Made by a program: the position numbers and the translations under genes | Part shown: piece by piece, positions 7,608 to 28,544 of the stretch | Position numbering within the stretch: position 1 is the first letter of the stretch | Layout: the number at the start of each line of letters is the position of its first letter | The notes under the pieces: generated by a model | Told to the model about the DNA's origin: nothing | The model's database searches: none | The model's input: only the letters and a program-made list of their open reading frames with translations | Source: Solirubrobacter pauli | Lineage (GTDB): Bacteria; Actinomycetota; Thermoleophilia; Solirubrobacterales; Solirubrobacteraceae | Reading direction: 5' to 3' | Assembly (NCBI RefSeq): GCF_003633755.1 | Contig: NZ_RBIL01000001.1 | Span: forward strand, 3,085,426 to 3,149,425 | DNA: 64,000 bases

Positions 7608-7639
7608 AGCAGATGCACAACCAACGAGGAGGAACAGGG

Positions 7640-8872: not shown

Positions 8873-8876
8873 TCGC

Positions 8877-10279: not shown

Positions 10280-12403
10280 GTGACGTCCCGCTGGGCCGTC
10301 ATCGGCCTGTGGCTGCTGCTGGCGGCCGCGATGCTGCCGCTGCAAGGCCCGCTCCAGAGCCGCGCCGCGGACGAGAGCGACACGTTCCTGGCCCGCGGTT
10401 CGGAGTCCGCCGAGGCCAAGCGCGTGATCGAGGCGCACTTCCGCGCGGGCAGCGAGAGCGCCGCCGTGATCGCCTACTTCCGCGAGGGCGGGATCACGTC
10501 CGACGATCGCCTGCGGATCGCCGACGACATGAACCGCATCTGCGCCGCGGGGACGATCCCGACGCTCAAGAGCGTCGGCTCGCCGTACGGGCTCGCGTGC
10601 GGCGACGACGACCCGCTCGACCTGAGCCCGGGCGGCCCAGGGCTGCTGACCTCGTCGGACGCGAGCGTCGCGCTCGCGTCCGCGTCCCTCACCGACGACA
10701 GCACGCCGGTGGCCGAGGCCGCGGCGGCGACGATCCGCTCGATCGTCCCCTCGCCGGACGGCGACAAGAGCGGCCTCCGGGCCTGGGTCACGGGCGAGGT
10801 CGGATTCGAGGCCGACCGCAGCGAGGCCGTGAAGACGATCGACGAGACGCTCCTGCTCGTCACCTGCGGCGTGCTGATCCTCCTGCTGCTGGCCATCTAC
10901 CGCTCGCCGCTGATGGCCCTGGTCCCGATCTTCGTCGTCGGCGTCGCCTACGTGGTCGCGGGCGGGAGCACCTACCTGCTCGTCCGCGCCGGGGTGACCA
11001 CGGTCAGCGGGCAGTCGACGGCGATCCTGATCGTGCTCATGTTCGGGGCGGGCACGGACTACTGCCTGCTGCTCGTGGCGCGCTTCCGAGACGAGCTGCG
11101 CCGGACCGCGGACGTGGACGCCGCGATCCGGCGGGCGAGCGAGCGCACCGCGCCCGCGATCCTCTCGGCCGGGGCGATCGTCGTCGCGGCGATGCTCGTG
11201 CTCGTCGTCGCCGACTACAACGCCACGCGCGAGATGGGCCCGATCCTCGCGCTCGGCATCGCGGTGATGGTCGTGGCCGGGCTCACGCTGCTGCCGGCGC
11301 TGCTCGGCGTGCTCGGCCGGCGCGCGTTCTGGCCCGCGGTACCCCGCGTCGAGGAGCGTCCGCGCCCGGTCGCGCCGCTCTGGCGCCGCGTCGGGCAGCT
11401 GGTGCAGCGGCGGCCCGCGCTCGTGGCGGCCGGGGTCACGGCGCTGCTGGTCGCCGGCGCGCTCGGCAACCTCGGCGGGCGTGAGCCGCTCGACTTCTCC
11501 GAGTCCTTCCGCAGCCCGCCCGAGTCGGTCGGCGGCGAGCAGCTCATCAGCGAGCGCTTCATCCCCGGGCGTGCGGCGCCCGTCGAGCTCGTGATGCCCT
11601 ACGGCGATCGCGAGGCCGTGCTCGGCGGCCTCACCAGCGGCGCCCGCACCGCGGTGGAGGAGGCCTACCTGTTCGCCGCGTCGGTCCCGAAGCGCGAGGG
11701 CGGGGAGTCCGAGCTCGCGCTCGCCCAGGCGTACCTGAAGCTGGAGCCGTTCTCGGACGCCGCGACCGACGCCATGCCCGAGCTGCGGCGGGTCGCGCGC
11801 GAGGCCGCGGGTGGCGAGCGCGTGCTGCTGGGCGGGGAAGTGCCTGAGGCCTACGACACGCGTGAGGCGCTCAAGCGGGACAACCGCATCGTCGTCCCGC
11901 TCGGGTTGCTGCTGATCCTCGTGATCCTCGGCGTGCTGCTGCGCGCCGTGGTCATGCCGCTGTACGTCATCGCGACCGTGATCCTGTCCTTCGGCTTCGC
12001 GCTCGGCGTCAGCTCGCTCATCTTCACGCACGTGATGGGCCAGCCGGCGAGCGACCAGACGCTCGAGCAGTTCGCGTTCATCTTCCTGGTCGCGCTGGGC
12101 GTCGACTACAACGTCTTCCTGCTCGCGCGCATCCGCGAGGAGCGCGTTCGCGCGTCATCCACGCGTGACGCCGTGGTCACCGCACTGGAGCGCACCGGCG
12201 GCGTGATCACGAGCGCCGGCCTGGTGCTCGCGGCGACCTTCAGCGTGCTGATGGCGCTACCGCTCGAATCGCTGTTCCAGGTGGGCTTCGTCGTCGCCCT
12301 CGGCCTGCTCGTCGACACCTTCCTGGTACGGGCCCTGCTGGTGCCCTCGCTGGCAGTTCTTTTGGGAGAACGCAATTGGTGGCCCGGCTCGCCGGTCACT
12401 TAG
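10280..12403 (+). CDS. MMPL family (RND superfamily) transporter
   Basis: A 707-residue integral membrane protein with the MMPL layout: one N-terminal helix, a large outer loop (about 25-185), a six-helix bundle, a second helix and outer loop (about 375-530), and a second six-helix bundle. The signatures FGAGTDYCLLLVARF and VALGVDYNVFLLARIREE carry the Asp-Tyr pairs used in proton transfer. The family exports lipids or siderophore-like molecules, using proton motive force. The GTG start directly abuts the previous stop. Cargo unknown. Confidence 0.92.
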   Translation: MTSRWAVIGLWLLLAAAMLPLQGPLQSRAADESDTFLARGSESAEAKRVIEAHFRAGSESAAVIAYFREGGITSDDRLRIADDMNRICAAGTIPTLKSVGSPYGLACGDDDPLDLSPGGPGLLTSSDASVALASASLTDDSTPVAEAAAATIRSIVPSPDGDKSGLRAWVTGEVGFEADRSEAVKTIDETLLLVTCGVLILLLLAIYRSPLMALVPIFVVGVAYVVAGGSTYLLVRAGVTTVSGQSTAILIVLMFGAGTDYCLLLVARFRDELRRTADVDAAIRRASERTAPAILSAGAIVVAAMLVLVVADYNATREMGPILALGIAVMVVAGLTLLPALLGVLGRRAFWPAVPRVEERPRPVAPLWRRVGQLVQRRPALVAAGVTALLVAGALGNLGGREPLDFSESFRSPPESVGGEQLISERFIPGRAAPVELVMPYGDREAVLGGLTSGARTAVEEAYLFAASVPKREGGESELALAQAYLKLEPFSDAATDAMPELRRVAREAAGGERVLLGGEVPEAYDTREALKRDNRIVVPLGLLLILVILGVLLRAVVMPLYVIATVILSFGFALGVSSLIFTHVMGQPASDQTLEQFAFIFLVALGVDYNVFLLARIREERVRASSTRDAVVTALERTGGVITSAGLVLAATFSVLMALPLESLFQVGFVVALGLLVDTFLVRALLVPSLAVLLGERNWWPGSPVT

Positions 12404-12560: not shown

Positions 12561-15500
12561 ATGGCCGATCGACGGTCCTTCGGCATGCCCATGCGGCATG
12601 TCGTCTTGTGCGCGGCGCTGTTGACGCTGGTGGCGTCACTGCTGGTGCCCGCCATCGCGAACGCGCAGGGCAGCAAGCGCGTTCTGCTCTACACCGGCAC
12701 CACCGGCTACCGCCACTCGGACGCGATCGACAACGGTCGTCAGCCGGTGCAGACGGCTGTCCAGGCCGCCGGATACACGGTGGACTGGGAAGACTGCACG
12801 AACAACGGCGGCGGCGCGAACAACTGCGACAACGCCAACAAGAACCCGCGCATCTTCACGGACGCCAACCTCGCCAAGTACGACGCGATCCTGCTGCTGA
12901 ACGCGTCCTCGAACGGCGTGCTGTGGAACGACGCGCAGAAGGCCGCGATCATCAAGTTCGTCCAGAACGGCGGCGGCATCGCCGGCGTCCACAACGCCAC
13001 GGACATGGGCACCAGCCAGGAGTCCTGGAACTGGTGGGACGGCAACAACGGCAACTCCGTGATCGGCGCGACGATGGCCGGCCACGCCGCGACCAGCCTC
13101 ACCAACATCGGTCAGATCCAGGTCGCCGACCACAACCACCTCGCCACCCGCGACCTCCCGGACCAGTACGGGGTCGGTGACGAGCACTACAACTTCCGCC
13201 GCAACGTCCGCGGCACGCACCACGTGCTCGCCACGATCGACGAGCGGACCTACACCCCTGGCGGCAACGCCATGGGCCAGGACCACCCGATCACCTGGTG
13301 CAAGCTCTACGACGGCGACAACGTCAACGACAACACGGGCACCAACAAGTCGTACAGCGACGGCCGCACGTGGGTCACGTCGATGGGCCACTTCGGCGCG
13401 CAGTACACCGAGAACGGCGGCAACAACAACCTCATCAAGACGATCGTCGGCGGTCTCCGCTGGGTCGCCGGTGAAGGCCGCAAGTCCGACTGCTCGGGCA
13501 CCGTCTGGTCGTCCTACACCCGCGAGGTCGTCGTCCCCGACGCCAACAACCCGATCGGGATCGACGTCGCCAAGGACGGCAAGGTCTACTGGTCCGAGAT
13601 CGGCAACCCGATCTCGCTCGAGTCCACGGGCTACGTGAAGATGTACGACCCGGCCAAGCCGGCCGGCAACAAGGCCACGGTCATCTCGATCCCGACGCGC
13701 GCCGACCACGGCAACTCCGAGGACGGCGTCCTGGGCATGAGCCTGCAGCCCGGCTTCGACCTGAGCGATCCGACCAAGCGCAACCTCTTCGTCTACTACT
13801 CGCCGCGCAATCCCGACTGGCCCATGTCCGGCAACCAGCAGGTCGTCGGCTACAACCAGATCAGCCGGTTCACGCTGACCGCCGACGGCGCCTCCGCGGT
13901 GGCCGGCTCCGAGCGCGTCATCCTGCGCGTCCCCAAGGCCAAGATCAGCGGCTCGCCGTCCGGCTTCCCGGGCGGTCCGACCGACTCGGGCCCCGGCCAC
14001 GTCGGTGGTGCCGGCCTGGACTTCGACTCCGCCGGCAACCTGTACCTGGGCGTCGGTGACGACGTGTCCCCGAACGCCACGGGCCACAACGGCTACGCCC
14101 CGATGGACTTCCGCGCCAAGGAGCGCTGGGACGCCCGCAAGACGGCCCAGAACTCCGCGGACCTGCGCGGCAAGATCCTGCGCATCACGCCGAAGCAGGG
14201 GGACATCCCTGCCGACGCCGCTCCCGGCGTCGACGCGACCTACGCGATCCCGGAGGGCAACCTCTTCCCGGTCGGCACGGCGAAGACCCGTCCCGAGATC
14301 TATGCGATGGGCTTCCGCCAGCCGTTCACGCTGCACACGGACCCGAAGAACCCGGGCGTCGTCGGCGCCGGCGAGTACTGCCACGACAACTCCTCCAACG
14401 CGGCCAACCGCTCCCCGGCGGGCACCTGCGAGTGGGACCTGCTCAACAAGCCGGGCAACCACGGCTGGCCGATGTGCGTCGGCAACAACTCCGCGGCGAA
14501 CTCCATGTTCAAGTGGAACTACGCGACGGGCAGCTCGACCGGCCAGCAGTACGACTGCAACCAGACGAGCCTGCCGTCCGACATCCGCTGGGCGCCGTCG
14601 GGGCAGACCCCGGTCGAGCCGACCTTCGACGGCCTGGACACCCTCCCGGGGCCGGTCGAGAAGGCCACGATCTGGAAGAAGTACAGCGGCGCGGCCGATG
14701 GCCAGAGCACCGCTGACTTCGGCAATCTCGACGCCGGCGGCATGCAGCCGCTCGCCGGTCCGATCTACCGCTACCCCGAGGGCACCGCGACCCAGGGCGC
14801 GTTCCCGCGCTACTACGACGGCTCGTGGCTGATCGGCAACCGCGGCTCGGACAACGGCTTCTGGAAAGAAGTCAAGATGCGCCAGGACAACAACCAGATG
14901 CTGCGGGTCAGCGACTGGCTGCCCTACAACGGCGGCGTCAACCCGTCCAACGCGAACTCGAGCCTCGTCATCGGCACGCAGTTCGGCCCGGACGGCGCCC
15001 TGTACATGTCGCGCTTCTCCGTCGGCTGCTGCCGTGCGCAGACGGGCACCGGCAACCAGAACCAGATCGTGAAGATCTCGTTCAACGTCCAGGACGAGTG
15101 CCTCACGGACACGAACGCGCCGAGCGTCTCGGCCGACGTGACCGGCCAGGCCTACCCGGACCGTGCCAACACCTACGTCAACAGCGCCAAGCTCAAGCTG
15201 TCGGCCACCGACTCCGGCTGCGCCGGCGTCAAGGGCATCGAGTACCGCCAGCAGGGCTCGACCGAGTGGTTGCCCTACACGACGGACGTCACGTTCGAAG
15301 AGGGCAAGACGTACACGATCGAGTACCGCGCGACCGACCGCAAGGACAACGTGTCGGCGGTCAAGACGGCCTCGTTCGAGATCCTCAAGATCAACGACTC
15401 GACGGCTCCGGTCGTCAACGCCGCCACCAGCGGCAACAAGGACCAGCGCAGCTACTTCGTCGGCTCCGCCACGCTCACGCTGACGGCGACCGACAACGAG

Positions 15501-18500
15501 GTCGGGGGCTCCGGCGTCCAGAAGGTCGAGTACCGCGTCAACGGCGGCGCCTGGACCCCGTACCTGGCTCCGGTCGCGTTCAACACGGCCGGCAACTACG
15601 AGGTCGAGTACCGCGCCACCGACAAGGTCAACAACACGTCGGAGATCAAGAAGGAGACGTTCCGCCTCCTCGGCGGCGCGGGCTGCACGCAGGCCCGCTC
15701 GGATGAGTTCGACGGCACGGCGCTCGGCTCGCAGTGGGTGCGTCACACGCGCAACGGCGGCACGCCGCTCAGCGCGCTGACGTTCTCGAACGGCCAGCTG
15801 CACATGCCGACGGCCGACTTCGAGCTCGACGCCGCCGCGACGAACACGTCCGTCGGCCCGGTGAACTTCATCGGCCAGGACCTCAACTCGCTCGGCGACA
15901 ACTGGCAGGTCGAGACCGAGTTCACCGTCAAGTACACCGGTGGTTGGCAGAACACCGGCCTGATCGTCTACAACGGCGACAACAACTTCTTCCGCTCGTC
16001 GATCACGCACAGCCTCTCGGCCGGCAACATCTACGTCGAGCAGTCGAAGGACAACCCCTCCAGCACGGAGGGCGCGCGTTCGCAGGCCGGCAGCAACATC
16101 ACGGTCGCGCCGAACAAGAACGACGCGATCACGATCCGCATGCGCTACACGCGCACCGCCGGCTCGAACACGGTCGTGCCGCAGTACCGGATCATGGCCC
16201 CCGCCTCCGCCGCCATGGCGGACTGGGCGGCCTTCGGTGGCGCGGCCAACTTCCTGGACCTCAACCCGACGTCCGGCGCTCGCCGTGACGCCGTCGGGTC
16301 CCGGATCGGCATCATCACCCAGTCCAACTTCCCGGGCACCACGGGCGCCAACCCGTACACGGGCACGCCCGGCACGGTGGACGTCAACTACTTCCGGGTC
16401 ACCCCGGATCCGCTGACCTGCGAGACGGACGCTCCGGCCACCACGGCCACCGTCGACCCGGCCGCTCCGGCCACGGGCGACACCTACGACCGCTCCGTCA
16501 AGGTCAACTTCTCCGCGACCGACACCGGCACCAACGCGGCGGGCGTCGAGAAGACCGAGTACCGCATCACCACCAACGGCGTCGCCGGCGAGTGGGTCAC
16601 CAAGACCAACGCCGCCAACGAGAGCCCGTTCGTGAACCAGATCACGGTCGCCAACAGCGGCACGCACCTCGTCGAGTTCCGCTCGACGGACAAGGCCGCC
16701 AACACCGAAGCGACCAAGTCGGTCACCTTCAAGGTCCAGCTGCCGGTCTGCGACCGCTCGGACGAGTTCGACGGCACGGAGATCCTGCCGCGCTGGATCC
16801 GTCACACGCGCAACGGCGGCACGCCCACCACGGGCCCGCTCGCGCCGACGGTCTCCGGCGGCCAGCTGCACCTGCCGACGAACGACCTCGAGATCGACGC
16901 CGCCGACAGCAACACCTCGGTCGGCCCGATCAACTTCCTCGGCCAGGACCTGCCCGCCCTGGGCAACGCCTGGACCGCGGAGACGCAGTTCACCGTGCAG
17001 TTCCGCGGTGGCTGGCAGAACATCGGCCTGGTCGTCTGGAACGGGGACAACAACTTCTTCCGCTCCACGATCACCCACAACCTGGGCTCTTCGGCGATCT
17101 TCGTCGAGAGCTCCAAGGACGCTCCGTCCTCGACCGAAGGTGCCCGCACCGGCGGCTCGAGCGCGAACATCCTGCCCAGCAACACCGGTCCGGTGACGAT
17201 CAAGATGCGCTACACGCGCGCCGCGAACGCCAACACCGTCACCGCGCAGTACCAGGTCGTCGCCCCGGCTTCGGCGGCCACCGCCGACTGGGTCAACTTC
17301 CCGACCATCACGGGCGGCCTGGACCTGAACCCGAGCAGCGGCGCGCGTCGTGACGCCACCGGCTCGCGGATCGGCCTGATCGCGCAGGACAACTGGCCGG
17401 CGGGCGGCACCTACCCGTCCAACGGCCAGCCGGCGATCGCGCACGTCGACTACTTCCGGGTCACCCCGGACAACTGCCCGACGGGCGCGGACCAGACGGC
17501 GCCGACGACGACCGCCACGGCGGCCCCGACGGCTCCGAACGGCACCAACGGCTGGTACACCTCGGACGTCAACGTGACCCTCGCGGGCAACGACGGCGCC
17601 AACGGCTCCGGCGTGGACAAGATCGAGTACAAGGTCGACGGCGGCGCCTTCGCCACCTACACCGCCCCGGTCGCGATCACGACCGCCGGCACCCACACGA
17701 TCGAGTTCCGCTCGACCGACAAGGCCGGCAACGTCGAGGCCACCAAGTCGCTGACGGTCAAGGTCGACAAGGTCGCGCCGACGACCACGGCGTCGCTCGA
17801 GCCGGCCACCGGCCCGTACACGGGCCCGGTCACGCTCACGCTGACGGCGGCCGACCAGCCCAACGCCTCCGGCGTGGCCAAGACCGAGTACATGGTCAAC
17901 ACCACCAGCCCGTTCAGCACCGTTGCGGCGGCCAAGCTGGCCAGCGCGGCGGCCGAGTGGGTCACCTACAACCCGGCGAGCAAGCCGCAGTTCAGCGCGC
18001 CGGGCAGCTACTCCGTCGACTACCGCTCGACGGACGCGGCCGGCAACGTGGAGACCGCCAAGACGGTGACCTTCACGATCGCCGGGCAGAGCAACGACAA
18101 GACCGCTCCGGTCACGACCAACACGCTCGACCCGGCCTCGCCCGGCGCCGGCCAGACGTACGTCGGCCCGGTCAAGGTGAAGTTCTCCGCGACCGACCCG
18201 GCCGGCTCGGGCGGCGGCTCCGCGGCCAAGACCGTCAAGGTCGAGGCGAGCGGTGACCGCTGGGCTCCGGACGCCGTGTCGCTCAACAACGGCGACAAGG
18301 TCGAGTGGAGCTTCCCGGCCGAGACCGCGACGTTCCCGCACGACGTGTGGGTGGTCGCGCCGGGCGGCAGCCAGGCCAACCCGACCCAGGTCACGAGCTC
18401 GATCGTGTTCCCGGGCGGCGATCCGGTCAGCAAGACGCTCGACCAGAACGGGGCGTGGACCTTCATCTGCAAGATCCACTCCGTCTACAACGCGGCCAGC

Positions 18501-19202
18501 ACCACCTGGACCGGCATGGTCGGCACGGCGACCGTCGCGGCGGCTCCGGCCGGCGAGACGCCGTCGGGCGTCGACTACACGGAGTACCGCGTGAAGACCG
18601 GCACGACCCAGGGTGACTGGGTCAAGGCCAACAACACGGCCGCGGCGAACCCGTTCGCGTCCGAGGTCACGGTCTCGGCGCTGGGCCAGCACACGGTCGA
18701 GTTCCGCTCGGTCGACAAGGCCGGCAACGTCGAGGCGACGAAGTCGGTCGGCTTCTCCATCAAGGAGGACACGGGCGACACCGTCACCGAGGACGCCGAC
18801 GTCAACGCCACGGTGCCGCGCACGCTCGGCATCTCGGTCAGCGGCGCCGCGACCTTCGGCGCGATCGTGCCGGGCGTGGACAAGGTCTACGACGCCTCGA
18901 CGAACGTGACCGTCACCTCGACGCTCACCGCCTCGAAGCTGACGATCCACGACTCCAGCGGGACCGCCCCCGGTCACCTGGTGTCCGGCACGTACGCGAT
19001 GCCGCAGGCGCTGCAGGTGGGCGTCGGCACCGCGTACTCGGCGCTCAGCGCCACCCCGACGACGTTGGGGACCTGGACCACGGCGCTGGCTTCCGAGCCG
19101 GTCACGCTGAAGTTCCGGCAGGCCGTCGCCAAGACCGACAAGCTCGTCGAGGGCAACTACAGCAAGCGCGTGACCCTGACCCTGGGGGCCACGACGCCGT
19201 AG
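12561..19202 (+). CDS. Giant secreted ThuA / glucose-sorbosone dehydrogenase / cupredoxin protein
   Basis: A 2213-residue exported protein. In order: signal peptide (1 to about 36, ending ANAQ); ThuA domain (about 40-305); PQQ-type glucose/sorbosone dehydrogenase propeller (about 330-848, with GHVGG carrying the likely catalytic His and GFRQPF the conserved Arg); two Ig-like repeats (about 853-1038); a concanavalin-like module beginning DEFDG (about 1046-1287); Ig-like repeat; a second DEFDG module (about 1399-1637); further Ig-like repeats; a cupredoxin domain (about 1891-1993, probable copper ligands His1927, Cys1970, His1973, Met1986) inserted within an Ig-like repeat; and a C-terminal beta domain ending NYSKRVTLTL. 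The combination suggests extracellular sugar oxidation with an internal electron acceptor. The start is set by a strong ribosome binding site. Confidence 0.93.
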   Translation: MADRRSFGMPMRHVVLCAALLTLVASLLVPAIANAQGSKRVLLYTGTTGYRHSDAIDNGRQPVQTAVQAAGYTVDWEDCTNNGGGANNCDNANKNPRIFTDANLAKYDAILLLNASSNGVLWNDAQKAAIIKFVQNGGGIAGVHNATDMGTSQESWNWWDGNNGNSVIGATMAGHAATSLTNIGQIQVADHNHLATRDLPDQYGVGDEHYNFRRNVRGTHHVLATIDERTYTPGGNAMGQDHPITWCKLYDGDNVNDNTGTNKSYSDGRTWVTSMGHFGAQYTENGGNNNLIKTIVGGLRWVAGEGRKSDCSGTVWSSYTREVVVPDANNPIGIDVAKDGKVYWSEIGNPISLESTGYVKMYDPAKPAGNKATVISIPTRADHGNSEDGVLGMSLQPGFDLSDPTKRNLFVYYSPRNPDWPMSGNQQVVGYNQISRFTLTADGASAVAGSERVILRVPKAKISGSPSGFPGGPTDSGPGHVGGAGLDFDSAGNLYLGVGDDVSPNATGHNGYAPMDFRAKERWDARKTAQNSADLRGKILRITPKQGDIPADAAPGVDATYAIPEGNLFPVGTAKTRPEIYAMGFRQPFTLHTDPKNPGVVGAGEYCHDNSSNAANRSPAGTCEWDLLNKPGNHGWPMCVGNNSAANSMFKWNYATGSSTGQQYDCNQTSLPSDIRWAPSGQTPVEPTFDGLDTLPGPVEKATIWKKYSGAADGQSTADFGNLDAGGMQPLAGPIYRYPEGTATQGAFPRYYDGSWLIGNRGSDNGFWKEVKMRQDNNQMLRVSDWLPYNGGVNPSNANSSLVIGTQFGPDGALYMSRFSVGCCRAQTGTGNQNQIVKISFNVQDECLTDTNAPSVSADVTGQAYPDRANTYVNSAKLKLSATDSGCAGVKGIEYRQQGSTEWLPYTTDVTFEEGKTYTIEYRATDRKDNVSAVKTASFEILKINDSTAPVVNAATSGNKDQRSYFVGSATLTLTATDNEVGGSGVQKVEYRVNGGAWTPYLAPVAFNTAGNYEVEYRATDKVNNTSEIKKETFRLLGGAGCTQARSDEFDGTALGSQWVRHTRNGGTPLSALTFSNGQLHMPTADFELDAAATNTSVGPVNFIGQDLNSLGDNWQVETEFTVKYTGGWQNTGLIVYNGDNNFFRSSITHSLSAGNIYVEQSKDNPSSTEGARSQAGSNITVAPNKNDAITIRMRYTRTAGSNTVVPQYRIMAPASAAMADWAAFGGAANFLDLNPTSGARRDAVGSRIGIITQSNFPGTTGANPYTGTPGTVDVNYFRVTPDPLTCETDAPATTATVDPAAPATGDTYDRSVKVNFSATDTGTNAAGVEKTEYRITTNGVAGEWVTKTNAANESPFVNQITVANSGTHLVEFRSTDKAANTEATKSVTFKVQLPVCDRSDEFDGTEILPRWIRHTRNGGTPTTGPLAPTVSGGQLHLPTNDLEIDAADSNTSVGPINFLGQDLPALGNAWTAETQFTVQFRGGWQNIGLVVWNGDNNFFRSTITHNLGSSAIFVESSKDAPSSTEGARTGGSSANILPSNTGPVTIKMRYTRAANANTVTAQYQVVAPASAATADWVNFPTITGGLDLNPSSGARRDATGSRIGLIAQDNWPAGGTYPSNGQPAIAHVDYFRVTPDNCPTGADQTAPTTTATAAPTAPNGTNGWYTSDVNVTLAGNDGANGSGVDKIEYKVDGGAFATYTAPVAITTAGTHTIEFRSTDKAGNVEATKSLTVKVDKVAPTTTASLEPATGPYTGPVTLTLTAADQPNASGVAKTEYMVNTTSPFSTVAAAKLASAAAEWVTYNPASKPQFSAPGSYSVDYRSTDAAGNVETAKTVTFTIAGQSNDKTAPVTTNTLDPASPGAGQTYVGPVKVKFSATDPAGSGGGSAAKTVKVEASGDRWAPDAVSLNNGDKVEWSFPAETATFPHDVWVVAPGGSQANPTQVTSSIVFPGGDPVSKTLDQNGAWTFICKIHSVYNAASTTWTGMVGTATVAAAPAGETPSGVDYTEYRVKTGTTQGDWVKANNTAAANPFASEVTVSALGQHTVEFRSVDKAGNVEATKSVGFSIKEDTGDTVTEDADVNATVPRTLGISVSGAATFGAIVPGVDKVYDASTNVTVTSTLTASKLTIHDSSGTAPGHLVSGTYAMPQALQVGVGTAYSALSATPTTLGTWTTALASEPVTLKFRQAVAKTDKLVEGNYSKRVTLTLGATTP

Positions 19203-19244
19203 GGACGAGATGACCCGCTAGGCACGCAGCACCCGAGTCACGTG

Positions 19245-19277
19245 AAGGCGGCCGCCCCTGGTCAGGGCGGCCGCCTT
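19245..19277 (+). terminator. Terminator hairpin after the first giant gene
   Basis: A 13-base-pair stem (AAGGCGGCCGCCC / GGGCGGCCGCCTT) with loop CTGGTCA, followed by CCGCGTTTT. It lies 42 bases after the stop codon. The stem core and loop recur after the second giant gene. Confidence 0.75.
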
Positions 19278-19326
19278 CCGCGTTTTGGACGAGACACCGA
19301 ACCGATGGTTGTGCGAGGGGAGAGGC

Positions 19327-22300
19327 ATGGCACGGAGTTGGGTAGGGCTGGTGCTTGCGCTGGTCGCGTTCGGGGCGTTGGCCCCGGCGACGGCCGCGGC
19401 GCAAGGGGAGACGGCGAAGGTCCTCATCTACTCGGGGACGACGGGCTACCGGCACGCGAACGGTGGTGAGGCGATCCAGCCCGCGGTCGTGGACCTGATC
19501 CAGGCGAAGCTGCAGGCCGCGGGCATCGCCAGCGACTACCGGACCTGCAGCGGGCACGGCACCGGTGCCGGCACGCTCCCGGGCTGTCGCAACACGACCG
19601 TCGGCAACCCCGCGATCTTCACCGCGGACAACCTCGCGCAGTACGACGCGATCTTCTTCTGGCAGGCGTCCTCGCTCAACCGCGGCGACACCACCAGCCC
19701 GCAGCTGTTCACCACGGGCGAGCAGGCCGCGATCGAGGCGTTCGCGCGCGCCGGCGGCGGCATCGCCGCGATGCACGCCTCGGTCACGATGGGCGCCGGC
19801 GCGGTCACGTGGCCCTGGTGGGACGCGCCGGGCGACAGCGCGATCGGCGCGCTGATGCCGGGCCACTCCGCCACCGACTCCAGCAACCTCGCGACGGTCG
19901 AGGTGTCAGACCGCCATCACCCCTCCACCAAGGACCTCCCCGACTCGTACCGCTTCGGCGACGAGCACTACACGTTCTCCTCGAACGTCCGCGGCACGCA
20001 CCACGTGCTGATGACGCTCGACGAGGAGAGCTACAACGTGGGCAGCGGCGTCACGCGCATGGGCGCGGACCACCCGATCGCCTGGTGCCGGATCTACGAG
20101 GGCGCGCGCATCTGGAGCTCGAGCCTCGGGCACTTCTCCGCCGCCTACCTGGAGAACGGCGGCGACAACCACCTCATCAAGCACCTGGTCGGCGGCGTCC
20201 GCTACGTCGCGGGCACGGCGGGCAAGGACTCCGACTGCGGCGCCACGGTGTGGACGAACTTCTCGCGCACCGTCCTCGCCGACGACCTGCGCGGCGCGAT
20301 CGGCATGGACATCGCGCGCGACGGCAAGGTCTACTGGACCGAGATCGGCAACCAGGCCCTCAACTCCGAGGGCCGGCTGCGGATGTACGACCCGCAGGCC
20401 AAGGCGACGAGCACGCTGCTGACGCTGCCGACCCGCGCCGACCATGAGTCCTCCAACGACGGCGTGCTCGGCATGGCCCTGGACCCGGGCTTCGCCACCA
20501 ACCGGCAGCTCTACATCTACTACTCGCCGCGCTTCGACCCGGGCTGCAACTCCTGCCTCGTCGTCGGCCACAACCTGATCAGCCGGTTCACGCTCAACGC
20601 GGCGGGGACCGCGGTCGTCACCGGCTCCGAGCAGGAGATCCTGCGCGTGCCCAAGGTCAAGGTCGGCAACGACAACAAGGACGGCGTCGCGGGCCAGAAC
20701 ACCTACAGCGCGCACGTCGGCGGGGGCACGCTGAGCTTCGACTCCGAGGGCAGCCTCTACATCGGCACCGGCGACGACGCCGATCCATTCGGCGCCGGCG
20801 GCAACGGCTACGCGCCGCTCGACCAGCGCTATCCGGAGCGCTACGACGCGCGCAACACCTCGGCCAACACGAACGACCTGCGCGGCAAGGTGCTGCGGAT
20901 CAAGCCGCTCGCGAACGCCGCCGGCGCCGCGGGCGTCGGCACGACGTACTCGATCCCGCCGGGCAACATGTTCGCCCCGGGGACCGCGAAGACGAAGCCC
21001 GAGATCTTCGCCATGGGCTTCCGCAACCCGTTCACGGTCATGGCCGACCCGGCGCATCCGGGGACGGTCGTGGTGGGCGACTATGGCCCGGACGCCGCCA
21101 CGAACTCCGCGACGCGGGGCCCCGCCGGCATCATCGAGTGGAACCGCGTGACCAAGCCCGGCTTCTACGGCTGGCCGCTGTGCGCGGGCGACAACTCGGC
21201 CGCGAACTCCTACTTCCGCTACACGTTCCCCAACGGCCCGTCCGGCGCGCGCTACGACTGCTCGACGGCTTCCATCCCGAACGAGTCGTCCTTCAACACC
21301 GGCCTGGCGGGCATCCCGGGCCCGGCGGTGGGCGCCGACGTCTGGCACAAGCGGACGGGCGATCACCCGGCGCGCTTCGCGATCCCGACCCGCTCGAGCC
21401 CGCAGGAGTCGATCACCGGCCCGATCTACCGGTACGATGCCGCGAACCCGTCGGACACCAAGTGGCCGGCGTACTACGACGGCGCCTGGTTCATCCTCGA
21501 CCGTGCGCAGAACTGGTGGCGCGAGGCACGCGTGCGCGACGACGGCTCGGGCCTGCTGCGCGTGAACGGCCTGTTCGGCTCGACGCAGTTCGGCGGGCCC
21601 AGCCACTCGTACCCGATCCCGGTCAAGTTCGGGCCCGACGGCTCGCTCTACGTCGCGACCTGGGATCACGACTGCTGCCGCGCGCAGCTGCCGGCGAGCC
21701 AACCGGGCCGGCTGATGCGGATCGACTTCATCGGCGACCAGGTGGACACCACCGCGCCGGTGGTGACGCCCGCGCTGACCGGCGCGCAGAACCCGTCCGG
21801 GGCGTACCTGGGCCGGGCGACGCTCGCCCTGGGCGCGACCGACAGCTCCGGCGTCTCACGCGTGGAGTACTCGCTCGACGGCACCGAGTGGACCCGCTAC
21901 ACGGAGCCGGTCGCGTTCACGACGCGCGGCACGTTCACCGTGCGGTTCCGCGCGACCGACCGGGCGGGCAACACCTCCGACGTCCAGCAGTCGACGTTCA
22001 CCGTCGTGGCGGGCGCGGCCTGCCTCCCGGCGCGGTCGGACGAGTTCAGCTCGACGCTGGACACGACGCGGTGGAGCTATCGCCACCCGACGACGCCCAC
22101 CGGCGCGCGGGCGCCCAGCGTGTCCAACGGCAGCCTCGTGCTGCCGCTCGGCGCGTACTCACTCGACCTGACCCGCACCGGCCCGTCGGCCATCCTCGGC
22201 CAGCCGCTGCCCGACGGCGACTTCGAGGTCGTCACCAAGATCACCTCGCCCGGGTTGGGCGGTGACAACGGCGGCCAGGGCAGCACCTACGCCCAGGTCG

Positions 22301-24363
22301 GCTTCAAGGTCTTCCAGACCAACGACAACTGGATCAAGGTCGCGCACACGCGCAACGCCGACAACAACCCGACCGGCACCGTCGCGACGTACTTCGAGAT
22401 GACGACGGAGACGGGCGGAACGCGCACGCTCGGCGCGCGCCAGGGCCTCGGCACCGGCAACCTGCCGACGTGGTGGATGCGCATCACGCGCGACGGCAAC
22501 ATCATCCGCGGTGCGTACTCGCTGACCGACCCCGACGGTGGTGGCGGCGGCGCGACGTGGATCGAGATGGGCGTCAACGCCAACCTCGACACGCTGCTGC
22601 CGGCGTCCGCCGGCCCGCGCTACCTGTCGCTCTACGGCGGCAACGGGTCGGGTTCGGCGAGCTTCGACTACGTGCGGTTCAACCCGGACGCGCCGACGGA
22701 CCAGTCGGCGCCGGTGTCCACGCACACCGTGGCCGCCGCCGACGGCACGAGCGGCTGGCACCGCACGCCGGTCGACGTGACCGTGACCGCGGCCGACGAC
22801 GGCGAGTGCGTCGCGGGTGTGGACAAGACCGAGTACCGGGTCGGCACCGGCGCGTTCGCCGCCTACACGGCGCCGATCCGCGTGGCCGACGACGGCACGC
22901 ACGCGATCGAGTACCGCTCGATCGACAAGGCCGGCAACGCCGAGACGGCGAAGGCGCTCACCGTCAAGCTCGACGGCACGGCGCCGACGACGACCGCGAG
23001 CACCGACCCGTCCGGCGCCGGGCCGCACCCGGGTCCGGTCACGCTGACGCTGAACGCGGCTGACGCGACCTCCGGCGTGGCGCGGACCGAGTACCGCGTC
23101 GACGACGCCGGCGCGTTCGCGGGCGCAGCCGCCGCCGCGCTCGCGGCGCCCGCGGAGTGGCAGGTCTACTCCGCGGCGAGCAAGCCCACGTTCACCGCCG
23201 ACGGCAGCTACGCGATCGAGTACCGCTCGACCGACGTCGCCGGGAACGCCGAGACCCCGAAGACCGTGACGTTCGCGGTCGGCACGCCGACGAGCGACGC
23301 CGGCGCCCCGGTCACCACGGCGGCGCTCGACCCCGCGCTGCCCGGCGCCGGGCAGGCGTACACCGGCCCGGTGACGGTGCGGTTCTCGGCGCGTGACGTC
23401 GCGCCGGCGGCCAACGTCGACGTCGACGCCAACGGCACCGCGTGGACGCCGTCGGCGGTGACCCTGACCGCGGGCGACACGGTCACGTGGCGCTTCGGCG
23501 CGACCGCGGGCAGCGCCCACGACGTGTGGCTCGTCCCGCCGGGCGGCGATCCGAGCCCGACGGGCCCGGATCTGACGAAGGTCTCCGACATCGTGTTCCC
23601 GGGCGGCGCACCCGTCTCGCGCGCGCTCACCCAGACCGGCACGTACACGTTCGTGTGCCGGCTGCACGCGGCGTTCACCGGCGGCGCGTGGACCGGCATG
23701 GTCGGCACGGCGGCGGTCGCCGCGGGTGGCGGCAGCGGCGTCGACTTCACCGAGCACCGCGTCGACGGCGGCGCGTGGGCGAAGGCGACCAACACGGCCG
23801 CGGCGAGCCCCTTCGCGTCCGAGGTGACGGTCGCGGCGCTGGGCCGGCACACGGTCGAGTTCCGCTCGGTCGACAAGGCCGGCAACGTCGAGGCGACGAA
23901 GTCGGTCGAGTTCTCGATCGAGGAGGACACGGGCGACGCCGTCACCGAGGACGGCGACGTCACCGCCACGGTCTCGCGCGCGCTGGGCCTCTCCGTGAGC
24001 GGCGCGGCGACCTTCGGCGCGATCGTGCCCGGCGTGGACAGGGTCTACGACGCGGAGACGCTGATCACCGTCACTTCGACGCTGCCGGCGACGAAGCTGA
24101 CGGTCCACGATGCCGGCGCCACCGCCACCGCCGGCCATCTGGTCTCCGGCTCGCACGCGATGCCGCAGGCGCTGCAGGTCGGCGTCGGGACCGCGTTCTC
24201 GGCGCTCAGCGGCACACCGGCGACGCTCGCGACGTGGACGACGGCGCTCGGGTGGGAGCCCGTCACGCTCAAGTTCCGGCAGCCCGTCGCGAAGACCGAC
24301 CGGCTGGTCGAGGGCAACTACAGCAAGCGCGTGACCCTGACCTTGGGGGCCACGACGCCGTAG
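19327..24363 (+). CDS. Giant secreted ThuA / glucose-sorbosone dehydrogenase / cupredoxin protein, paralogue
   Basis: A 1678-residue paralogue of the preceding gene. Signal peptide (1 to about 27, ATAAAQ); ThuA domain (about 30-290); dehydrogenase propeller (about 322-800, with AHVGGG and GFRNPF); Ig-like repeat; one DEF-type concanavalin-like module (about 901-1120; the first protein has two); two Ig-like repeats; an Ig-like repeat split by a cupredoxin domain (ligands His1398, Cys1444, His1447, Met1458); and the same C-terminal beta domain ending NYSKRVTLTLGATTP. The ATG at 19327 has GGGGAGAGG just upstream. It probably has the same chemistry with a different substrate. Confidence 0.93.
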   Translation: MARSWVGLVLALVAFGALAPATAAAQGETAKVLIYSGTTGYRHANGGEAIQPAVVDLIQAKLQAAGIASDYRTCSGHGTGAGTLPGCRNTTVGNPAIFTADNLAQYDAIFFWQASSLNRGDTTSPQLFTTGEQAAIEAFARAGGGIAAMHASVTMGAGAVTWPWWDAPGDSAIGALMPGHSATDSSNLATVEVSDRHHPSTKDLPDSYRFGDEHYTFSSNVRGTHHVLMTLDEESYNVGSGVTRMGADHPIAWCRIYEGARIWSSSLGHFSAAYLENGGDNHLIKHLVGGVRYVAGTAGKDSDCGATVWTNFSRTVLADDLRGAIGMDIARDGKVYWTEIGNQALNSEGRLRMYDPQAKATSTLLTLPTRADHESSNDGVLGMALDPGFATNRQLYIYYSPRFDPGCNSCLVVGHNLISRFTLNAAGTAVVTGSEQEILRVPKVKVGNDNKDGVAGQNTYSAHVGGGTLSFDSEGSLYIGTGDDADPFGAGGNGYAPLDQRYPERYDARNTSANTNDLRGKVLRIKPLANAAGAAGVGTTYSIPPGNMFAPGTAKTKPEIFAMGFRNPFTVMADPAHPGTVVVGDYGPDAATNSATRGPAGIIEWNRVTKPGFYGWPLCAGDNSAANSYFRYTFPNGPSGARYDCSTASIPNESSFNTGLAGIPGPAVGADVWHKRTGDHPARFAIPTRSSPQESITGPIYRYDAANPSDTKWPAYYDGAWFILDRAQNWWREARVRDDGSGLLRVNGLFGSTQFGGPSHSYPIPVKFGPDGSLYVATWDHDCCRAQLPASQPGRLMRIDFIGDQVDTTAPVVTPALTGAQNPSGAYLGRATLALGATDSSGVSRVEYSLDGTEWTRYTEPVAFTTRGTFTVRFRATDRAGNTSDVQQSTFTVVAGAACLPARSDEFSSTLDTTRWSYRHPTTPTGARAPSVSNGSLVLPLGAYSLDLTRTGPSAILGQPLPDGDFEVVTKITSPGLGGDNGGQGSTYAQVGFKVFQTNDNWIKVAHTRNADNNPTGTVATYFEMTTETGGTRTLGARQGLGTGNLPTWWMRITRDGNIIRGAYSLTDPDGGGGGATWIEMGVNANLDTLLPASAGPRYLSLYGGNGSGSASFDYVRFNPDAPTDQSAPVSTHTVAAADGTSGWHRTPVDVTVTAADDGECVAGVDKTEYRVGTGAFAAYTAPIRVADDGTHAIEYRSIDKAGNAETAKALTVKLDGTAPTTTASTDPSGAGPHPGPVTLTLNAADATSGVARTEYRVDDAGAFAGAAAAALAAPAEWQVYSAASKPTFTADGSYAIEYRSTDVAGNAETPKTVTFAVGTPTSDAGAPVTTAALDPALPGAGQAYTGPVTVRFSARDVAPAANVDVDANGTAWTPSAVTLTAGDTVTWRFGATAGSAHDVWLVPPGGDPSPTGPDLTKVSDIVFPGGAPVSRALTQTGTYTFVCRLHAAFTGGAWTGMVGTAAVAAGGGSGVDFTEHRVDGGAWAKATNTAAASPFASEVTVAALGRHTVEFRSVDKAGNVEATKSVEFSIEEDTGDAVTEDGDVTATVSRALGLSVSGAATFGAIVPGVDRVYDAETLITVTSTLPATKLTVHDAGATATAGHLVSGSHAMPQALQVGVGTAFSALSGTPATLATWTTALGWEPVTLKFRQPVAKTDRLVEGNYSKRVTLTLGATTP

Positions 24364-24460: not shown

Positions 24461-24472
24461 GTGAGGAGAAAA

Positions 24473-25624
24473 GTGGGACAGCGCGTCGTCGGAATCATCA
24501 TGAACGGGGTCACCGGCCGGATGGGGATGAACCAGCACCTCATCCGCTCGATCCTCGCCATCCGCGAGCAGGGCGGCCTGCCGATCGGCGGCGGGGACGT
24601 CATCTGGCCCGAGCCACTGCTCGTCGGGCGCAGCGAGGGCAAGCTCGCCGCGCTGGCGCGGCAGCACGGGCTGGAGCGCTGGTCGACGGACCTGGACGCG
24701 GCGCTCGCCGATCCGGCCTACGAGGTCTACTTCGACGCGCAGCTCACCTCGGCGCGGCCGCCGGCCGTGGAGAAGGCGATCGCCGCGGGCAAGCACATCT
24801 ACTGCGAGAAGCCGGTCACGCCGGACGTCGAGACCGCGCTGGCGCTCGGCCGGGCCGCGCGGGACGCGGGCGTCAAGGCCGGCGTCGTCCAGGACAAGCT
24901 CTTCCTGCCGGGGCTGCTGAAGCTCCAGCGGCTCGTGCAGTCGGGCTACTTCGGGCGCATCATCGCCGCGCGCGGCGAGTTCGGCTACTGGGTCTATCCC
25001 GGGCCCGACCCGGCGCCGCAACGGCCCTCGTGGAACTACCGGCGCGAGGACGGCGGCGGGATCATCAGCGACATGTTCGCCCACTGGCGCTACGTGCTCG
25101 ACAACGTGTTCGGGCCCGTGCGCTCGGTGCTGGCGACCGGCGCGACGCACATCCCGACGCGGATCGGCGAGGACGGGCAGCCCTACGAGGCCACGGCCGA
25201 GGACGCGGCCTACGCGATCTTCGAGTTCGACGGCGGCCTCGTCGTGCAGATGAACTCGTCCTGGTGCGTGCGCGTGAACCGCGACGAGCTGTTCGAGCTG
25301 CAGGTCGACGGCACCGAGGGCAGCGCCGTCGCCGGCCTGCGCGGGTGCAAGATCCAACCCGCGGTCGGCACGCCCAAGTCGGTCTGGAACCCGGACCTGC
25401 CCGACCCCGTCGCGCACCGCGAGTCGTGGCTCGAGGTGCCCGCCACCGAGCCGCCGGAGAACGGCTTCAAGCTCCAGTGGGAGGCGTTCCTGCGGCACGT
25501 CGTGCTCGACGAGCCGTTCCCGTGGGACTTCGTGGAGGGTGCGCGCGGCGTGCAGCTCTACGAGCTCGCCGAGCAGTCGTGGCGCGAGCGGCGCTGGATC
25601 GACGTGCCGGAGCTGACGTTGTGA
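24473..25624 (+). CDS. Gfo/Idh/MocA family oxidoreductase
   Basis: A 383-residue NAD(P)-dependent sugar oxidoreductase with an unusual first loop (GIIMNGVTGRMGMNQHL) and the EKP motif HIYCEKPVTPD carrying the likely catalytic lysine. GTG 24473 is chosen because GAGGAG lies 4 bases upstream. Its stop overlaps the GTG of the DUF993 gene. It is only distantly related to the oxidoreductase at 2968, so the two operons likely handle different substrates or steps. Local context (DUF993, isomerase, GMC oxidase) suggests interconversion of hydroxyl and keto groups on a sugar or glycoside. Confidence 0.9.
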   Translation: MGQRVVGIIMNGVTGRMGMNQHLIRSILAIREQGGLPIGGGDVIWPEPLLVGRSEGKLAALARQHGLERWSTDLDAALADPAYEVYFDAQLTSARPPAVEKAIAAGKHIYCEKPVTPDVETALALGRAARDAGVKAGVVQDKLFLPGLLKLQRLVQSGYFGRIIAARGEFGYWVYPGPDPAPQRPSWNYRREDGGGIISDMFAHWRYVLDNVFGPVRSVLATGATHIPTRIGEDGQPYEATAEDAAYAIFEFDGGLVVQMNSSWCVRVNRDELFELQVDGTEGSAVAGLRGCKIQPAVGTPKSVWNPDLPDPVAHRESWLEVPATEPPENGFKLQWEAFLRHVVLDEPFPWDFVEGARGVQLYELAEQSWRERRWIDVPELTL

Positions 25625-26754
25625 GGCTGCCGCGCGCGGACGGGACGCTGGAGGAGTACACGCCGCAGCTGCGCGAGCCGCTTCCCGTGCTGGGCAGCGA
25701 GCCGCGGTCGCGCGTGTGCTTCGCCGCGGCGCACGTCGTCGCGGACCCGCTGGCCGGCGGCGACCCGACCGGTCCCGCGCAGGTCGACTGGGAGGCGACG
25801 CTCGCCTTCCGCCGGCACCTGTGGGCGCACGGCCTGCGGGTCGCGGAGGCGATGGACACGGCCCAGCGCGGCATGGGCCTCGACTGGGCGGCGACGCAGG
25901 AGCTGATCCGGCTGTCGGTGGCCGAGGCCAAGGCCGAGGGCGGCCGGCTCGCGTGCGGCGCGGGCACCGATCAGCTGACCGGCCCCGCGTCGCTGGACGC
26001 GGTGCGCGCGGCCTACGAGGAGCAGCTCGCCTTCATCGAGGGTGAGGGCGCGCCGGTGATCCTGATGGCCTCGCGCGCGCTCGCCGCGGCCGCATCGGGG
26101 CCGGACGACTACCGAGCCGTCTACGGGCATCTGCTCTCGCAGGCCGGCACGCCGGTGGTCCTGCACTGGCTCGGTGACATGTTCGACCCGCTGCTCGCGG
26201 GCTACTGGGGGTCGCACGACCTCGACGCGGCGGCGGACGTCGTGCTCGACATCATCGAAGCCCACGCCGACAAGGTCGACGGCATCAAGGTCTCCCTGCT
26301 CGACGACGCGCGCGAGATCGCGCTGCGGGAGCGGCTCCCGGCCGGCGTGCGGATGTACACGGGCGACGACTTCAACTACCCGGGCCTGATCAAGAGCGGC
26401 AGCGACGCGCTGCTCGGCATCTTCGACGCGATCGCGCCGGCCGCCGCGGCGGCGATGCACGCGCTCGACGCGGGCGACGAGGCGCGCTACGACGCGCTGC
26501 TGGCGCCGACGGTCCCGCTCTCGCGCCACATCTTCAAGGCGCCCACGCCCTACTACAAGACGGGCGTCGTCTTCCTCGCCTATCTCAACGGCCACCAGGA
26601 CCACTTCCGGATGGTCGGCGGCCTCGAGAGCGGGCGCTCGGTCGTGCACCTGAGCGAGCTGTTCGTCCTCGCCGACCAGGCGGGGCTGTTGCGCGAGCCC
26701 GACCTGGCGACCGCGCGGATGCGGCTGGTGCTGGAGCTCGCGGGCGTGTCATGA
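25621..26754 (+). CDS. DUF993 family protein (aldolase-like TIM barrel)
   Basis: About 377 residues matching the DUF993 family, which resembles dihydrodipicolinate synthase-type Schiff-base aldolases. Visible marks are VVLHWLGDMFDPLLAGYWG in mid-protein, DGIKVSLLD (a lysine at the position expected for a Schiff base) and TGDDFNYPGLIKSG near the C-terminal third. No reaction is firmly known to me for the family. In this operon it would cleave or dehydrate a keto sugar made by the oxidoreductase. The GTG start overlaps the previous stop and its own stop overlaps the next ATG. Confidence 0.85.
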   Translation: MRLPRADGTLEEYTPQLREPLPVLGSEPRSRVCFAAAHVVADPLAGGDPTGPAQVDWEATLAFRRHLWAHGLRVAEAMDTAQRGMGLDWAATQELIRLSVAEAKAEGGRLACGAGTDQLTGPASLDAVRAAYEEQLAFIEGEGAPVILMASRALAAAASGPDDYRAVYGHLLSQAGTPVVLHWLGDMFDPLLAGYWGSHDLDAAADVVLDIIEAHADKVDGIKVSLLDDAREIALRERLPAGVRMYTGDDFNYPGLIKSGSDALLGIFDAIAPAAAAAMHALDAGDEARYDALLAPTVPLSRHIFKAPTPYYKTGVVFLAYLNGHQDHFRMVGGLESGRSVVHLSELFVLADQAGLLREPDLATARMRLVLELAGVS

Positions 26755-28513: not shown

Positions 28514-28544
28514 GGGTGGGACCTTAGTGAGGAGGAGAGCGCTG

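What the first reader, a model, noticed from the sequence alone, without database searches (positions are those of the whole stretch)
12561..24363. Secreted sugar-dehydrogenase giants with a built-in blue-copper domain
Both giants carry a PQQ-type glucose/sorbosone dehydrogenase domain, a ThuA domain and a cupredoxin domain with His, Cys-x2-His and Met ligands (His1927/Cys1970/His1973/Met1986; His1398/Cys1444/His1447/Met1458). A dehydrogenase and a one-electron carrier in one exported chain suggest a self-contained extracellular oxidation device. The ThuA domain might then process the oxidised (keto) sugar.
Basis: partly seen in the sequence, partly recalled or inferred. Interest (0 to 1): 0.85.

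Follow-up and report, generated by a model that had tools for sequence, protein, structure and literature searches.

The report
Keto-sugar enzymes with built-in plastocyanin domain
Two giant, apparently secreted proteins of a soil actinobacterium each join a sugar-oxidising propeller, a keto-sugar-type (ThuA) domain and a copper electron carrier in one chain, where relatives in another phylum carry a haem electron carrier instead, so the chain is probably a self-contained extracellular sugar-oxidation device, although its cofactor and substrate are unproven.

Summary
Both ORFs encode a signal-peptide-like N-terminus, ThuA, a GSDH beta-propeller (AlphaFold model closest to A. calcoaceticus glucose dehydrogenase), ConA-like and Ig-like repeats, and a plastocyanin-fold domain whose His/Cys-x2-His/Met ligands are invariant in 18 related copies.

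For a redox device: (i) Bacteroidota versions of the same core carry a fused cytochrome c; (ii) cupredoxin shows 3 changes on the GSDH tree, at two different positions, and recurs in a second actinobacterial family; (iii) stand-alone cupredoxin genes sit beside some ThuA-GSDH genes that lack one; (iv) paralogues put a 3-keto-disaccharide hydrolase domain in the same chain as ThuA, GSDH and cupredoxin; (v) the locus holds conserved genes typical of C3-oxidised sugar catabolism.

Against the literal "PQQ" claim: catalytic His144 and Arg228 are kept, but PQQ-clamping Lys377, Arg406 and Arg408 are lost in the giants, and no PqqC was detected in the genome. The cofactor is therefore unknown. Most actinomycete relatives sampled show no fused carrier.

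Verdict: a real, recurrent, apparently uncharacterised architecture; a new variant of a known kind.

The parts
12561..19202 (+). Giant 1, 2213 aa multidomain protein, probably secreted (ThuA-GSDH-2 Ig-ConA-Ig-ConA-2 Ig-[cupredoxin nested in Ig]-C-terminal domain)
   Evidence: SD-like ggaggaggag upstream
12678..13466 (+). Giant 1 ThuA domain (aa 40-302)
   Evidence: Pfam PF06283 3.5e-39; most invariant His/Glu/Tyr/Trp residues of the family kept
13491..15083 (+). Giant 1 GSDH beta-propeller (aa 311-841)
   Evidence: custom HMM; PF07995 5.1e-7 in the genome search; PDB 2ism match 9.6e-4; His144/Arg228 equivalents kept, Asn229->Gln, Lys377/Arg406/Arg408 lost
15696..16403 (+). Giant 1 first concanavalin-like domain (GH43_C2-like, aa 1046-1281)
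16755..17465 (+). Giant 1 second concanavalin-like domain (aa 1399-1635)
18240..18521 (+). Giant 1 cupredoxin (aa 1894-1987), nested in an OmpL47/Ig-like repeat; ligands His1927, Cys1970, His1973, Met1986
18792..19199 (+). Giant 1 C-terminal ~136-aa domain shared by many giants of this genome
   Evidence: no Pfam name
19327..24363 (+). Giant 2, 1678 aa multidomain protein, probably secreted (ThuA-GSDH-Ig-ConA-2 Ig-[cupredoxin nested in Ig]-C-terminal domain); the TTG start at 19285 is probably too early
19417..20208 (+). Giant 2 ThuA domain (aa 31-294)
   Evidence: Pfam PF06283 5.7e-35
20236..21729 (+). Giant 2 GSDH beta-propeller (aa 304-801)
   Evidence: PF07995 5.1e-17; AF2 pLDDT 83, pTM 0.90; best PDB sGDH 8re0/1cq1, E 5e-19; residues
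22033..22683 (+). Giant 2 concanavalin-like domain (aa 903-1119)
23422..23703 (+). Giant 2 cupredoxin (aa 1366-1459), nested in an Ig-like repeat; ligands His1398, Cys1444, His1447, Met1458
   Evidence: PF00127 1.2e-5; AF2 pLDDT 97 and plastocyanin match
10280..12403 (+). MMPL-family transporter immediately upstream, conserved next to giant 1 in 5 sister genomes
24461..25624 (+). Gfo/Idh/MocA oxidoreductase B
25621..26754 (+). DUF993 protein (PF06187), overlaps the previous gene by 4 bp
26751..27539 (+). AP_endonuc_2 / xylose-isomerase-like TIM barrel
28233..30146 (+). GMC-family FAD oxidoreductase (real start probably near 28540, MEHDVLIVGAGPSG; no signal peptide seen)
2968..4074 (+). Gfo/Idh/MocA oxidoreductase A, most like levoglucosan (C3) dehydrogenase, below that model's cut-off
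   Evidence: NF052479 161 bits, cut-off 650
4067..9734 (+). Sugar ABC importer (ABC_tran, BPD_transp_2, Peripla_BP_4) and D-psicose 3-epimerase-like TIM barrel
   Evidence: adjacent to the giant-1 orthologue in G002

Best explanation
Each giant is an exported glycoside-oxidising enzyme that carries its own electron acceptor. The GSDH propeller takes two electrons from a sugar (probably the C3 hydroxyl of a glycoside or oligosaccharide) with a bound quinone-type cofactor and hands them one at a time to the plastocyanin-like copper domain, which passes them to the cell's electron-transport chain. The ThuA domain then acts on the keto-sugar, perhaps cleaving it or aiding its cleavage, while the ConA/Ig modules hold the substrate or space the domains. 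The keto-sugar or sugar released is imported and converted by the neighbouring ABC importer, Gfo/Idh/MocA oxidoreductases and TIM-barrel isomerase/epimerases. SHOWN by computation: domains, folds, copper ligands, kept catalytic His/Arg, synteny, carrier swap and recurrence. INFERRED: export, C3 position, cofactor, substrate, ThuA reaction, direction of electron flow.
For: Propeller fold = sGDH. His144 and Arg228 equivalents kept in 13/13 giant-clade, 79/79 other actinomycete and 11/11 Bacteroidota/Rhodothermales sequences. Type 1 copper site invariant, plastocyanin fold. Ten Bacteroidota relatives carry one CxxCH after the propeller; Pfam confirms cytochrome c in all five of them that were scanned, four as ThuA-GSDH-PKD-Cytochrom_C and one as GSDH-PKD-Cytochrom_C beside a ThuA gene. 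Cupredoxin needs 3 changes on the GSDH tree, all forced by starred branches, once at a different position (N-terminal to ThuA), and recurs in another actinobacterial family. 4 of 12 stand-alone cupredoxin genes lie within 6 kb of a ThuA gene (0.5 expected, P about 0.001; 0.007 counting one per locus). Clade-B paralogues have ThuA, GSDH, PF06439 3-keto-disaccharide hydrolase (93-95 bits) and cupredoxin on one chain. MMPL-g1-g2-GfoB-DUF993-TIM-barrel order conserved in sister genomes; in G002 the importer cluster sits beside giant 1.
Against: Lys377, Arg406 and Arg408 (PQQ carboxylate clamp) are lost in the giants. No PqqC in the genome. Most actinomycete ThuA-GSDH proteins in the sample have no fused or adjacent cupredoxin and no CxxCH, so a carrier is not obligatory. 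Cupredoxins of the second lineage appear to lack the axial Met. The enrichment test was chosen after seeing the data. No biochemistry of any ThuA-GSDH protein was found in the papers searched.
Confidence: 0.5

Rival explanations
1. Classical PQQ aldose 1-dehydrogenase: the propeller oxidises C1 of free aldoses to lactones with scavenged PQQ, copper is the acceptor, and ThuA has an unrelated role.
For: Fold and catalytic His/Arg match sGDH. sGDH-type enzymes can take up external PQQ (background knowledge: E. coli and S. coelicolor Asd bind added PQQ).
Against: PQQ clamp residues lost; no PqqC; neighbours and sister paralogues point to C3-keto chemistry.
Confidence: 0.12
2. The propeller is not a dehydrogenase but a binding or lyase module (as HHIP, a GSDH-fold protein that is not an enzyme); ThuA does the chemistry and the cupredoxin is an independent add-on such as a copper store or a docking domain.
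For: Loss of Lys377/Arg406/Arg408; HHIP is also among the structural matches. A companion ~1050-aa protein has lost His144 and Arg228.
Against: His144/Arg228/Asn229 and Gly-Pro near-invariant across two phyla; association with two unrelated one-electron carriers.
Confidence: 0.23
3. The cupredoxin passes electrons for another secreted redox enzyme (e.g. an LPMO or other partner), the giant being mainly a scaffold.
For: Fungal AA12 pyranose dehydrogenase with cytochrome b drives LPMOs (title/abstract of PMC5960967); stand-alone cupredoxins exist near some loci.
Against: No LPMO was found among the window genes scanned; the GMC enzyme nearby shows no signal peptide.
Confidence: 0.1

Closest known systems
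Soluble PQQ glucose / aldose sugar dehydrogenases (A. calcoaceticus sGDH, 2ISM, 3DAS, YliI/Asd; Pfam GSDH)
   Same: six-bladed propeller fold, catalytic His144, Arg228, Asn229 (giant 2), Ca-site Gly-Pro (giant 2)
   Different: Lys377, Arg406, Arg408 absent; Gln246 position reads Arg; fused to ThuA, ConA, Ig repeats and cupredoxin
CAZy AA12 pyranose dehydrogenase of Coprinopsis cinerea (AA8 cytochrome b - AA12 - CBM1; PMC6881789, PMC4332668)
   Same: GSDH-type propeller plus a one-electron carrier and a carbohydrate-binding module in one secreted chain
   Different: carrier is blue copper, not haem b; ThuA domain present; only a weaker structural match (1e-8 to 1e-9)
Bacteroidota ThuA-GSDH-PKD-cytochrome c proteins, some with CBM6 (L118, L130, L137, L146; ThuA in a separate frame in L143)
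   Same: homologous ThuA-GSDH core, carrier placed C-terminal after Ig/PKD-like domains
   Different: haem c carrier instead of cupredoxin; no characterised member found
3-keto-glycoside pathways (PF06439 3-keto-disaccharide hydrolases BT2157/CCNA_01705 with LacABC, PMC9007349; levoglucosan LgdA-C, PMC7676230)
   Same: Gfo/Idh/MocA and sugar epimerase/isomerase-like neighbours; PF06439 domain fused in sister giants
   Different: giants 1 and 2 themselves have no recognisable PF06439 domain; the proposed oxidant is a GSDH propeller, not LacABC or an NAD enzyme
Plastocyanin / amicyanin (type 1 copper)
   Same: fold and all four ligands
   Different: ligand loop longer (C-x2-H-x10/12-M); nested in an Ig-like repeat of a giant protein

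Membership tests
GSDH / PQQ-dependent sugar dehydrogenase | six-bladed GSDH propeller fold | tested here: met
   (giant 2 modelled; giant 1 by homology)
GSDH / PQQ-dependent sugar dehydrogenase | catalytic His144 and Arg228 (sGDH numbering) | tested here: met
   13/13 giant-clade sequences
GSDH / PQQ-dependent sugar dehydrogenase | PQQ carboxylate clamp Lys377, Arg406, Arg408 | tested here: not met
   Gly/Ala/Ser; Asn/Ser/Gly/Thr; Ile/Leu in the giant clades (the gapped loop makes the exact partner of 406 uncertain, but no Arg lies there). AA12 also lacks Lys377 and uses a different Arg, so this is not decisive
GSDH / PQQ-dependent sugar dehydrogenase | PQQ available from own synthesis | tested here: not met
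   PqqC TIGR02111 absent in own genome; the probe works elsewhere in the phylum (8 of 298 over cut-off); scavenging not excluded; other pqq genes not searched
GSDH / PQQ-dependent sugar dehydrogenase | sugar oxidation activity with PQQ/Ca2+ | not testable with these tools
   needs protein
Plastocyanin-type cupredoxin | His, Cys-x2-His, Met ligands and Greek-key fold | tested here: met
Plastocyanin-type cupredoxin | blue copper absorbance / redox activity | not testable with these tools
   needs protein
ThuA (PF06283) | profile match over cut-off and family-invariant His/Glu/Tyr/Trp residues | tested here: met
ThuA (PF06283) | activity on 3-keto-disaccharides | not testable with these tools
   recalled from ThuA/ThuB trehalose work, not verified in the papers searched
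3-keto-disaccharide hydrolase (PF06439) | PF06439 domain in the chain | tested here: not met
   not found in giants 1 and 2; present in clade-B paralogues
CAZy AA12 | AA12 propeller subtype | tested here: not met
   no AA12 hit in Pfam at E<1; AA12 structures rank far below sGDH

The most novel reading that the evidence does not exclude
A widespread, uncharacterised class of secreted ThuA-GSDH enzymes oxidises glycosides to 3-keto-glycosides with a re-built (perhaps non-PQQ) quinone site and uses interchangeable built-in one-electron carriers, haem c in Bacteroidota and blue copper in several actinobacterial lineages, some with the 3-keto-disaccharide hydrolase in the same chain: a one-protein extracellular oxidise-and-cleave route that bypasses ordinary glycosidases.
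Probability: 0.3. Interest if true: 0.78.

Novelty: new variant of a known kind. Interest (0 to 1): 0.56.

Why it matters
25 ThuA copies over the family cut-off in one genome, 24 to 32 matches per genome in six of seven genomes of the genus, and relatives across Actinomycetota and Bacteroidota suggest that a large, apparently uncharacterised group of secreted enzymes performs oxidative glycoside breakdown. If the built-in copper is the electron acceptor, this would be a blue-copper counterpart to the haem-fused AA12 pyranose dehydrogenase, a candidate for direct-electron-transfer electrodes, and a handle on the function of ThuA, whose pairing with a dehydrogenase fold in one chain makes its role testable. 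The lost PQQ clamp also makes the annotation 'PQQ-dependent sugar dehydrogenase' questionable for proteins of this class.

Tried and rejected
(1) Chance motif: rejected; ligands are invariant in 18 related domains and the fold is plastocyanin. (2) Carrier unique to this window: rejected; found in paralogues, in the other genomes of the genus (G001-G005 by locus, G006 by hit) and in a second family. (3) Cupredoxin in or near the ThuA-GSDH gene of other actinomycetes: none in the 80-locus scan within the fetched flanks, so not universal. (4) PQQ synthesis: PqqC sought, not found; the first control set had no positive, so the phylum sample was used as control. (5) Literature on ThuA with sorbosone dehydrogenase, ThuA with Solirubrobacter, or cupredoxin with sugar dehydrogenase: no paper in the held library. 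(7) Two of three intended GSDH control sequences (L154, L155) were not usable at the C-terminal positions; only L153 shows the R-x-R motif. (8) The long minus-strand ORF 12636-18977 looks like a mirror ORF of a GC-rich gene, not a gene.

Full report
OBSERVATION. The two ORFs at 12561-19202 and 19285-24363 are genuine high-GC3 genes. The second probably starts at ATG 19327, which follows a purine-rich ribosome-binding-site-like stretch. Both begin with what looks by eye like a Sec signal peptide. Pfam and custom HMMs give the order ThuA - GSDH - Ig-like (OmpL47-type) repeats with one or two concanavalin-like domains - Ig-like repeats - cupredoxin nested inside an Ig-like repeat - a shared C-terminal domain. 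Giant 1's GSDH domain is divergent: Pfam hmmscan misses it, but the family is found there by genome search (5.1e-7) and it aligns along its length with giant 2 at 47% identity.

COPPER DOMAIN. In 18 aligned copies His, Cys, His and Met are invariant although identity to giant 2 falls to 26%. The profile finds plastocyanins in the PDB at 3.5e-15 with all four ligands aligned. An AlphaFold2 model (pLDDT 97) matches plastocyanin (1.3e-6). The loop from the second His to Met is longer than in plastocyanin.

PROPELLER. The AlphaFold2 model of the giant-2 GSDH domain (pLDDT 83, pTM 0.90) is closest to A. calcoaceticus sGDH (5e-19) and other PQQ sugar dehydrogenases; AA12 is more distant (1e-9). On an alignment anchored to sGDH the catalytic His144 and Arg228 are kept in all 13 giant-clade sequences, in all 79 other actinomycete sequences and in the 11 Bacteroidota/Rhodothermales sequences. 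Asn229 is Gln in the giant-1 clade. Lys377 and Arg408 are replaced almost throughout the family; at the Arg406 position about 60% of the actinomycete sequences have Arg or Lys, the giants neither. The canonical aldose dehydrogenase of the same genome (L153) keeps an R-x-R motif there. PMC6881789 names Lys377, Arg408 and the arginine pair shared by AA12 and sGDH as PQQ contacts; AA12 itself lacks Lys377, so loss of part of the clamp does not by itself exclude PQQ. PqqC is not detected in the genome, while the probe reaches its cut-off in 8 of 298 actinobacterial genomes. The cofactor is thus open.

IS THE CARRIER FUNCTIONALLY TIED TO THE ENZYME? Several lines. (1) Ten Bacteroidota relatives have one CxxCH after the propeller, and Pfam finds cytochrome c, after a PKD domain, in all five of these that were scanned (L118, L130, L137, L143, L146; 1.9e-5 to 3.9e-10); in L143 ThuA is in the neighbouring frame. 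Rhodothermales L120 has no carrier. (2) On the propeller tree cupredoxin needs three changes, all forced by starred branches: giants 1+2, the roughly 2500-3000-aa clade B, and a clade with the cupredoxin N-terminal to ThuA. One gain with losses, or domain exchange between the first two, is not excluded. (3) Genus g168 of another actinobacterial family has the same layout with the cupredoxin again between Ig repeats (L156, L157; a third genome has a 2694-aa frame with the domain, not fetched); there the axial Met position appears to read Gln/Asn. (4) Stand-alone cupredoxin genes lie beside ThuA-GSDH genes lacking a fused one (L045, L048) and near clade B (L046); 4 of 12 are within 6 kb of a ThuA gene, 0.5 expected (P about 0.001, or 0.007 counting one per locus; post hoc). 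(5) In clade B a 3-keto-disaccharide hydrolase domain (PF06439, 93-95 bits) lies in the same chain as ThuA, GSDH and cupredoxin, in three genomes. (6) Most of ThuA's family-invariant His, Glu, Tyr and Trp residues are kept in the giants, so that domain is probably active.

NEIGHBOURHOOD. The window flanks hold ROK regulators, a sugar ABC importer, a levoglucosan-dehydrogenase-like Gfo/Idh/MocA enzyme (below that model's cut-off), epimerase/isomerase-like TIM barrels, DUF993, a second Gfo/Idh/MocA and a GMC oxidoreductase. MMPL - giant 1 - giant 2 - GfoB - DUF993 - TIM barrel is conserved in G003 and G004 and, as far as the fetched stretch reaches, G001; G005 has the same order with giant 1 alone; in G002 giant 1 is followed by Gfo, importer and epimerase genes and then GfoB. 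This gene content resembles published 3-keto-sugar routes (PMC7676230: levoglucosan 3-dehydrogenation, elimination, hydration, reduction; PMC9007349: LacABC with DUF1080), but no pathway here is proven.

MECHANISM. Most likely: extracellular oxidation of a glycoside by the propeller, one-electron hand-over to the built-in copper, ThuA (and in clade B the PF06439 domain) processing the keto-sugar, then uptake. Fold, ligands, kept catalytic residues, carrier swap and synteny are computed results; export, C3 position, substrate, cofactor, ThuA chemistry and electron flow are inferred. The main counter-evidence is the lost PQQ clamp and the many actinomycete homologues with no carrier.

NOVELTY. 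Carrier-fused propeller dehydrogenases are known with haem (AA12). I found no paper in the held library on ThuA-GSDH fusions or on a sugar dehydrogenase with a cupredoxin, though that library omits most subscription journals. I rate it a new variant of a known kind.

Noticed in passing
whole genome G000 and genus relatives: ThuA is strongly expanded: 25 copies over cut-off in this genome and 24-32 matches in six of seven genomes of the genus (9 in G002), most in long frames.
   Followed up: partly
L046:10380-13562 and L066:10631-13765: A 1045-1061 aa ThuA-GSDH protein next to each of these clade-B giants has lost the catalytic His (now Arg) and Arg (now Ser), suggesting a degenerate propeller kept as a partner or binding module.
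   Followed up: no
L046:1367-10399; L064; L068: Giants of 2500-3000 aa combine ThuA, GSDH, ConA domains, a 3-keto-disaccharide hydrolase domain (PF06439) and a cupredoxin in one chain.
   Followed up: yes
window 18792-19199 and 23950-24360: A ~136-aa C-terminal domain ending ...TLGATTP is shared by many giants of this genome and has no Pfam name at E<1; possibly a cell-surface sorting or anchoring domain.
   Followed up: no
L156:4223-11368, L157:7315-16020: Cupredoxins fused to ThuA-GSDH in another actinobacterial family appear to have Gln/Asn where the axial Met should be, reminiscent of stellacyanin.
   Followed up: no
L158:3731-5830 and L159:5839-7788: Proteins joining a plastocyanin domain to a right-handed beta-helix.
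   Followed up: no
window 12636-18977 (-): A 2113-aa open frame mirrors giant 1 on the opposite strand; looks like a GC-rich mirror ORF, not a gene.
   Followed up: partly
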